Source: Bacteroidota bacterium (GTDB lineage: Bacteria > Bacteroidota > Bacteroidia > B-17B0 > Aurantibacillaceae). From it: 64,000 bases of DNA. The stretch is taken from NCBI GenBank assembly GCA_003153315.1, contig PLYA01000008.1, positions 44,245 through 108,244 of the forward strand. The letters run 5' to 3'. The first letter of the stretch is position 1; every line of letters begins with the position of its first letter. The notes beneath the pieces were generated by a model, which saw only the letters and a list, made by a program, of their open reading frames with translations, was not told the DNA's origin and did no database searches. This document shows, piece after piece, positions 5,902 through 6,237 of the stretch. A program made the translations under genes and the position numbers.

Positions 5902-6134
5902 AACATTTGTCTGCCCTTACAAATGGTTTGCGAGTGCTTACAAATGATTTATGAACCCTTGAAAATGGTTTGCAAGCCCTTACAAATGGTTTGCGAGTAC
6001 TTGAGAATGATTTGTGAACACTTGCAAATGGTTTATGAGTGCTTGCAAATGATTTGCGAATACTTAATATAATATGCAAGTACTTGCAAATGATTTGCGT
6101 GCCCTTACAAATGGTTTGCAAGTGCTTGAAATTA
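5902..6134 (-). repeat. Degenerate 21-nt tandem repeat array, locus 1 (about 11 units)
   Basis: Gene-strand units such as GCAAACCATTTGTAAGGGCAC, GCAAATCATTTGCAAGTACTT, GCAAATCATTTGCAAGCACTC; one unit is 20 nt. Confidence 0.92.
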
Positions 6135-6237
6135 GATGGTTTTTGGTATATTTGTTCATCTAAAAGGGCAAAACCTAACCATATCTTGCTAAAACAGCAG
6201 GATAAGGATAAAAAAGTTAGTCCTATAAGGGAGTTAG
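6101..6237. repeat. 137-bp dispersed element, copy 1
   Basis: Matches 36219-36355 with 2 mismatches by eye (GCCCTTACAAATGG...CCTATAAGGGAGTTAG). Confidence 0.92.
6126..6154 (+). promoter_or_regulatory. Candidate Bacteroidota promoter in the 137-bp element
   Basis: TTG-N18-TATATTTG; the TTG overlaps the last array unit. Confidence 0.5.

What the first reader, a model, noticed from the sequence alone, without database searches (positions are those of the whole stretch)
6101..6237. 137-bp near-identical element bordering the locus 1 array, with promoter and hairpin
6101-6237 and 36219-36355 match at 135/137 positions by eye although they lie 30 kb apart in noncoding DNA. The element holds the terminal array unit, TTG-N18-TATATTTG (TTG inside the last repeat unit), then a segment that can fold as TATCTTGCT-AAAAC-AGCAGGATA (9-bp stem) with CTAAC...GTTAG outside it and TCCTATAAGGGA downstream. 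This fits a small structured RNA transcribed away from the array, or the terminus of a mobile element.
Basis: partly seen in the sequence, partly recalled or inferred. Interest (0 to 1): 0.8.

Follow-up and report, generated by a model that had tools for sequence, protein, structure and literature searches.

The report
Docking site for mobile gene cassettes
The repeated 137-base stretch is a promoter plus the landing site where a bacterial gene-capture system (an integron) inserts mobile genes, and the system appears to use a recombinase that lacks the part thought essential for this job, so it is a new and widespread version of a famous gene-shuffling machine.

Summary
6101-6237 and 36219-36355 match at 135/137 bases, and a third copy (86%) lies on the same contig outside the window.

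It is neither a small RNA nor a transposon end. It is the promoter plus insertion site (attI) of an integron-like system. Three results settle this. (1) The 92-bp core aligns without gaps to sites directly downstream of a tyrosine-recombinase gene in many relatives. (2) Similarity stops exactly at G|TTA; two genomes are 200/200 identical up to that point and random after it. (3) DNA after the site is gene cassettes with 85-175-bp attC sites; the first bases of each cassette are complementary to the flank of its own attC (35 of 41 match at 4-5 of 5 positions; control 6%). The same genome holds a 14-cassette array next to such a recombinase. In the window's contig, attC sites occur only behind the three attI copies.

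The recombinase is XerA-like and lacks the roughly 41-residue IntI-specific insert. In 297 genomes of the class, canonical IntI occurs in 1 and this enzyme in 66. I found no description of the system in the papers searched. The 21-nt arrays are frequent in the genome and not specific to these sites. Recombination itself is inferred, not assayed.

The parts
6126..6154 (+). cassette promoter (Pc), copy 1: TTG 6126-6128, N18, TATATTTG 6147-6154
   Evidence: sequence; a similar TAnnTTTG-like box lies just downstream of the recombinase stop codon in many homologous sites. Promoter activity inferred from the Bacteroidota consensus (own knowledge).
6144..6235 (+). attI core of copy 1 (92 aligned columns), crossover between G6233 and T6234
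   Evidence: gapless alignment with 19 other attI sites; CM R1 hit E 4.7e-12, by construction since it is in the model; similarity between copies ends here
6182..6204 (+). inner hairpin of attI, copy 1 (TATCTTGCT-AAAAC-AGCAGGATA)
   Evidence: covariation at columns 33-47/53-67: 75% of cells paired; whole structure 66.8% vs 51.0% shuffled, 0/500
6234..6399 (+). remnant of a cassette without an evident gene at copy 1; only the 3' arm of its attC remains (right end GTT at 6400)
   Evidence: attC CM R2 hit C24:50530-50652 = window 6286-6408, E 0.0025; 92% over 51 bp to a C43 attC
36244..36272 (+). cassette promoter (Pc), copy 2
   Evidence: same boxes as copy 1
36262..36353 (+). attI core of copy 2, crossover between G36351 and T36352
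   Evidence: identical to copy 1 over the core; (R1 hit)
36352..37413 (+). gene cassette A: first bases TTAGTAGT are complementary to the flank of its own attC (ACTACTAA)
   Evidence: 5/5 match
36542..37192 (-). cargo of cassette A: outer-membrane beta-barrel protein, 216 aa, reversed relative to Pc
   Evidence: Pfam OMP_b-brl_2 E 4.7e-10
37288..37421 (+). attC of cassette A (TAAC 37293, GTTA 37413)
   Evidence: CM R2 E 9.1e-22, in the model; 97.8% identical over 134 bp to an attC of the C43 integron
37414..38434 (+). second cassette region B with DUF5670 (37449-37604 -) and CsbD-like (37927-38115 -) genes
   Evidence: one search shows that its start does NOT match its attC flank (0/5), so it is probably a deletion product
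38309..38442 (+). hybrid, degenerate attC at the end of region B
   Evidence: CM R2 E 1.1e-7; the two arms come from different attC types
5913..6131 (.). 21-nt repeat array next to copy 1 (neighbour, overlaps the promoter's left end; not shown to be part of the integron)
   Evidence: TRF; arrays are common elsewhere

Best explanation
The element is a cassette promoter (Pc) plus attI, the docking site of an integron-like gene-capture system of Bacteroidota. Circular gene cassettes are inserted at G|TTA at its right end by recombination with their own attC site, and are then transcribed from the promoter. The enzyme is a XerA-like tyrosine recombinase with an extra N-terminal domain and without the IntI-specific insert. 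[quoted passage not shown] The three copies on the window's contig are attI/Pc platforms without an integrase in cis, each carrying a different cassette or remnant; they would be served in trans. Shown: site homology, exact boundary, cassette and attC anatomy, enzyme-site linkage, absence of the insert. Inferred: catalysis by this enzyme, circular intermediates, recombination of the attC bottom strand, promoter activity, action in trans.
For: (1) Homology to sites behind an integrase: gapless 92-column alignment of copies 1 and 3 with 18 sites from relatives, nearly all directly downstream of a recombinase gene or its remnant. (2) Boundary: copies 1 and 2 are identical over the 90 nt before GTT and random after it; two other genomes are 200/200 before and 49/150 after. 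(3) Cassette signature: in 41 neighbouring pairs, 35 match at 4-5 of 5 bases between cassette start and own attC flank (30 at 5/5); control 5.9%. (4) Complete system in the same genome: C43 has recombinase, attI and 14 consecutive cassettes of 0.6-1.9 kb, the longest ORF of every cassette in the same orientation; C93 has recombinase, attI and 2 attC. (5) Location: of 37 attC hits genome-wide, the 4 on C24 all lie behind the three attI copies. (6) Likely same cassette pool: a window attC is 97.8% identical to a C43 attC. (7) attC strand bias: wobbles favour bottom-strand pairing 67 to 9, as in known integrons. (8) Breadth: recombinase in 65 of 89 genomes of the family and 66 of 297 of the class, where canonical IntI is in 1.
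Against: No recombination or transcription data. No integrase gene lies next to the window copies. Cassette A's gene is reversed relative to Pc, copy 1 holds only a remnant, and region B fails the start-attC match (0/5), so some of these platforms may be decaying. The C93 attI is not found by the covariance model. The genome is a draft with 6.2% estimated contamination, so C43 and C93 might not belong to the same cell; C24 itself is unaffected. The 35 attC stems of the strand test are related, so its p-value (4e-12) is optimistic.
Confidence: 0.93

Rival explanations
1. A small structured RNA transcribed from the TATATTTG promoter away from the array, acting as a regulator.
For: Promoter-like boxes and a covarying hairpin; the leader of any cassette transcript would indeed contain the hairpin.
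Against: No Rfam match. No excess of G.U over A.C in the stem. The site lies behind recombinase genes across the class, and DNA after it is cassettes.
Confidence: 0.04
2. The terminus of a transposon or other mobile element that duplicated itself with the 21-nt array.
For: Three copies with a sharp right boundary; copies 1 and 3 share the array.
Against: No transposase seen nearby and no shared left end beyond the array. The right boundary is a GTTA core followed by three different cassettes or remnants that end in attC.
Confidence: 0.04
3. The cassettes are moved by another enzyme (host XerC/D or an integron integrase acquired elsewhere), and the neighbouring recombinase is a bystander.
For: The recombinase lacks the insert thought to be needed for folded attC sites.
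Against: Its stop codon is directly followed by attI in most loci across many genera; canonical IntI is found in 1 of 297 class genomes.
Confidence: 0.1
4. The attI copies on C24 are dead relics with no function today (compatible with the best explanation of their origin).
For: Copy 1 carries only a cassette remnant; region B has a hybrid attC; no integrase in cis.
Against: Copies 1 and 2 are identical over the attI core, copy 3 carries an intact cassette (perfect 5/5 match), and a window attC is 97.8% identical to one in the C43 array.
Confidence: 0.25

Closest known systems
Chromosomal integrons with IntI (class 1 mobile integron, Vibrio cholerae superintegron)
   Same: attI next to a promoter; ordered one-gene cassettes; attC of about 120 bp with TAAC...GTTA ends; insertion at G|TT; attC wobble bias favouring the bottom strand.
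   Different: The recombinase is XerA-like, without the IntI-specific insert and with an N-terminal extra domain. It is transcribed towards attI, not away. attI is a conserved covarying palindrome. attC arms show no consistent extrahelical base.
Treponema integrons (PMC3607928)
   Different: That paper describes an intI; here the IntI-specific insert is missing.
XerA / NCBIfam NF040815 recombinases; archaeal XerA structures 5hxy, 4a8e
   Same: Best family model (226 bits, cut-off 220) and best sequence matches; top structural match.
   Different: Known XerA resolves chromosome dimers at dif; here the gene sits at attI with cassettes.
In0 / CALIN / lone attC elements
   Same: The C24 copies lack an integrase in cis and carry one or two cassettes.
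   Different: In0 is an integrase without cassettes; here attI+Pc+cassette stands without integrase and is present in three copies.

Membership tests
Integron (functional platform) | attI site with exact insertion point | tested here: met
Integron (functional platform) | array of cassettes with attC sites in tandem, less than 4 kb apart | tested here: met
   C43: 14 consecutive attC in 18.4 kb
Integron (functional platform) | tyrosine recombinase gene next to attI | tested here: met
   C43, C93 and most loci of relatives; not for the three C24 copies themselves
Integron (functional platform) | IntI with the IntI-specific additional domain (PMC9668308, PMC4792948) | tested here: not met
   TIGR02249 at about 200 bits vs cut-off 265, in two split stretches; 22 residues where 2a3v has 64; KGxxxR-HxxRH spacing mostly 65 vs 106 in a canonical IntI; separate clade
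Integron (functional platform) | active cassette promoter Pc | not testable with these tools
   TTG-N18-TATATTTG fits the Bacteroidota consensus (own knowledge); no expression data
attC site | imperfect palindrome TAAC...GTTA whose outer bases pair with the cassette start | tested here: met
   35/41 vs control 5.9%
attC site | folded bottom strand favoured | tested here: met
   67 bottom-strand vs 9 top-strand wobbles; recombination itself not tested
attC site | extrahelical bases (EHB) | tested here: inconclusive
   an extra base is seen in a minority of the 35 distinct stems; most have a mismatch or wobble instead
Structured small RNA family | match to a curated family | tested here: not met
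   no Rfam hit in the window
Structured small RNA family | covarying stem with RNA-type wobble preference | tested here: inconclusive
   covariation met, G.U preference not seen
Transposon terminus | transposase or paired inverted ends | tested here: not met
   no inverted repeat pairs of 40 nt or more in the window; none of the seven neighbouring genes scanned is a transposase

The most novel reading that the evidence does not exclude
Class Bacteroidia carries its own integron lineage in which a XerA-like recombinase without the I2 insert recombines folded attC sites, perhaps with an attI that itself folds as a hairpin. It would be either a surviving pre-I2 stage of integron evolution or an independent invention, and extra attI platforms elsewhere in the genome are loaded in trans.
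Probability: 0.45. Interest if true: 0.93.

Novelty: new variant of a known kind. Interest (0 to 1): 0.86.

Why it matters
Integron surveys define integrons by the IntI-specific domain, so the recombinase of this lineage is passed over by them. IntegronFinder 2.0 reports for Bacteroidetes proper only In0 elements and one complete integron in Salinibacter ruber (PMC9024848), yet about a fifth of the sampled class genomes carry this enzyme. The I2 insert is described as found nowhere outside IntI and its origin as a chicken-and-egg paradox (PMC4792948); a working integron without it would make that question testable. It also points to a large, little-surveyed pool of mobile genes in Bacteroidota.

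Tried and rejected
Rfam: no match. Phage and plasmid collections: no match.

Exact 17-mer in genome contigs gave 62 scattered hits in unrelated phyla, read as chance and not followed up; a 16-mer in viral contigs hit coding DNA only.

Canonical IntI in the own genome: only sub-cut-off hits.

RNA reading: tested by G.T versus A.C counts, no support.

Array-integron link: tested by scanning for repeat periods of 14-44 nt; arrays are common without attI and absent at most attI sites. A relative (G005) has a similar promoter with array units before an ordinary gene.

The first motif for extracting attI was too strict and lost most sites; repeated with a corrected one.

The structure model has low pTM (0.51) and was used only as a check on the fold.

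Full report
WHAT WAS CLAIMED AND WHAT IS THERE. The two 137-bp copies are real (135/137) and a third lies at C24:6322-6459 on the same contig. The promoter-like boxes and the 9-bp stem are as described. Alignment of the three copies shows that they stop being alike at GTTAG and that everything to the right differs.

THE BOUNDARY IS AN INSERTION POINT. Copies 1 and 2 are 90/90 identical before GTT and 30/100 after it; copies 1 and 3 are 77/90 and 24/100. Two other genomes of the class (L192, L193) give the cleanest case: 200/200 identical before GTT, 49/150 after. Something is inserted at G|TTA.

WHAT IS INSERTED. Right of copy 3 is a cassette with a 327-aa ORF, ending in a 120-bp imperfect palindrome TAAC...GTTA. 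Right of copy 2 is a cassette with a reversed outer-membrane beta-barrel gene, ending in the same kind of site at 37288-37421. These are attC sites. The independent test is that in an integron the bases opening a cassette pair with the bases flanking the TAAC of its own attC, hundreds of bases away: copy 2 GTTAGTAGT/ACTACTAAC, copy 3 GTTAGGTGC/GCACCTAAC. Over 41 consecutive pairs from eleven loci, 30 match at 5/5 and 5 at 4/5; non-neighbours reach 4-5 in 5.9%. Region B behind copy 2 fails (0/5); its attC has arms of two types and is probably a deletion product.

THE COMPLETE SYSTEM IN THE SAME GENOME. Contig C43 starts with a 21-nt array, then a 359-aa tyrosine recombinase (387-1466), an attI (crossover at 1566) and 14 consecutive cassettes up to 18.4 kb; the longest ORF of every cassette runs in the same direction. 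Cargo includes an Mrr-type endonuclease and proteins with type IX secretion tails. Contig C93 has a second recombinase, attI and two attC. A covariance model of attC finds 37 sites in the genome. On C24 there are four, all behind the three attI copies, including the remnant behind copy 1. The attC of cassette A is 97.8% identical over 134 bp to one on C43. This suggests, but does not prove, a shared cassette pool and loading in trans.

THE attI FAMILY. The sequence after the recombinase stop codon was extracted from relatives. Twenty sites, including copies 1 and 3, align without a gap over 92 columns ending in a TATAAnnnA|GTT-like core. A few of the longer or indel-bearing sites (including C43 and C93) were left out of that alignment. 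Column pairs on one diagonal (i+j=100) covary strongly: 66.8% of cells paired against 51.0% in shuffles, 0 of 500 shuffles as high, and partners slid by 1-3 columns fall to 33-43%. A second diagonal (i+j=142) gives an alternative hairpin next to the crossover. So attI is a covarying palindrome with four related arms. G.T and A.C mismatches are about equally frequent (14 and 18 in the inner stem), so this does not point to RNA. Whether it reflects inverted protein-binding sites or folded single-stranded DNA is open.

THE ENZYME IS NOT IntI. The C43 protein passes the NCBIfam cut-off of NF040815 (XerA type) and fails that of integron integrase TIGR02249, which matches in two pieces. Aligned to the V. 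cholerae integrase structure 2a3v, 22 residues stand where 2a3v has 64. The spacing between the KGxxxR and HxxRH motifs is 65 in nearly all homologues measured and 106 in a canonical IntI found in the same phylum. The two groups form separate clades (support of the new clade moderate, 84/84). It has an N-terminal extra domain. The gene points towards attI, as in Treponema integrons (PMC3607928).

HOW WIDESPREAD. The recombinase is found in 65 of 89 genomes of the family, 66 of 297 of the class at E<=1e-90 covering 44 of 163 genera, and 77 of 250 of the phylum at E<=1e-60 (this looser set includes more distant recombinases). Canonical IntI over cut-off is in 1 of 297 class genomes but in 73 of 250 phylum genomes, nearly all in other classes. 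Downstream attI motifs were found in 15 of 20 further class loci by pattern.

STRAND BIAS OF attC. In 35 distinct attC stems, mismatches that become G.T wobbles on the bottom strand number 67, on the top strand 9. Known integrons recombine the bottom strand. The sites are related, so the nominal p-value is optimistic, but the direction is nearly uniform. Extrahelical bases, which the I2 insert accommodates in IntI (PMC4792948), are not consistent here. That fits an enzyme without I2, but it is an inference.

THE 21-NT ARRAYS. Eight arrays were found in about 168 kb of C24 and C43, i.e. about one per 21 kb. Most relatives' attI sites have no array nearby. Copies 1 and 3 share the array family, which fits duplication of array end plus promoter plus attI. 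The arrays are a separate, unexplained feature.

LITERATURE. Nine searches and the papers read gave no description of this system; preprints and most subscription papers were not available, so prior description cannot be excluded. NCBI's family name 'site-specific tyrosine recombinase/integron integrase' shows that the likeness was noticed at the protein level.

CONCLUSION. The element is a Pc+attI platform of an integron-like system with a non-IntI recombinase. It works like an integron; by the protein criterion now used it is not one. The enzyme's activity, the strand used and service in trans remain to be tested.

Noticed in passing
window 5913-6131, 35861-36002; L008:16541-16880; L140:24-421; L141:15495-15852; L142:18511-18818: Imperfect 21-nt repeat arrays, different in sequence at each locus but with the same period, about one per 21 kb; several lie just upstream of minus-strand genes for 220-270-aa proteins of unknown function (window 5143-5814, 34954-35760, L008:15774-16556).
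   Followed up: partly
L123:76-362 and L125 (reverse strand) 737-1403: Arrays of 22-nt and 20-nt period lie directly upstream of the integrase gene in two relatives, like the 21-nt array before the C43 integrase.
   Followed up: partly
window 37330-37360; attC sites of L140: The apex of the attC sites holds a conserved motif like TTTTGTACTTTTATT that resembles a Bacteroidota promoter box; each attC may drive the next cassette.
   Followed up: no
G000 contigs C85, C90, C97, C44, C31, C46, C70: Further attC sites, singly or in groups of 3-5, away from known integrases; may be other cassette clusters or assembly breaks.
   Followed up: no
G000:C52:144837-144934 and C22:6768-6831: Weak attI-model hits (E 0.2 and 0.8), not examined.
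   Followed up: no
L132, L133, L134, L138, L144: Contigs of several relatives end within a few kb of the integrase, as expected if cassette arrays break assemblies.
   Followed up: no
window 6442-6894: The thioesterase gene (4HBT) lies downstream of copy 1 and its cassette remnant in the same direction, so the old cassette promoter may now drive a chromosomal gene.
   Followed up: no
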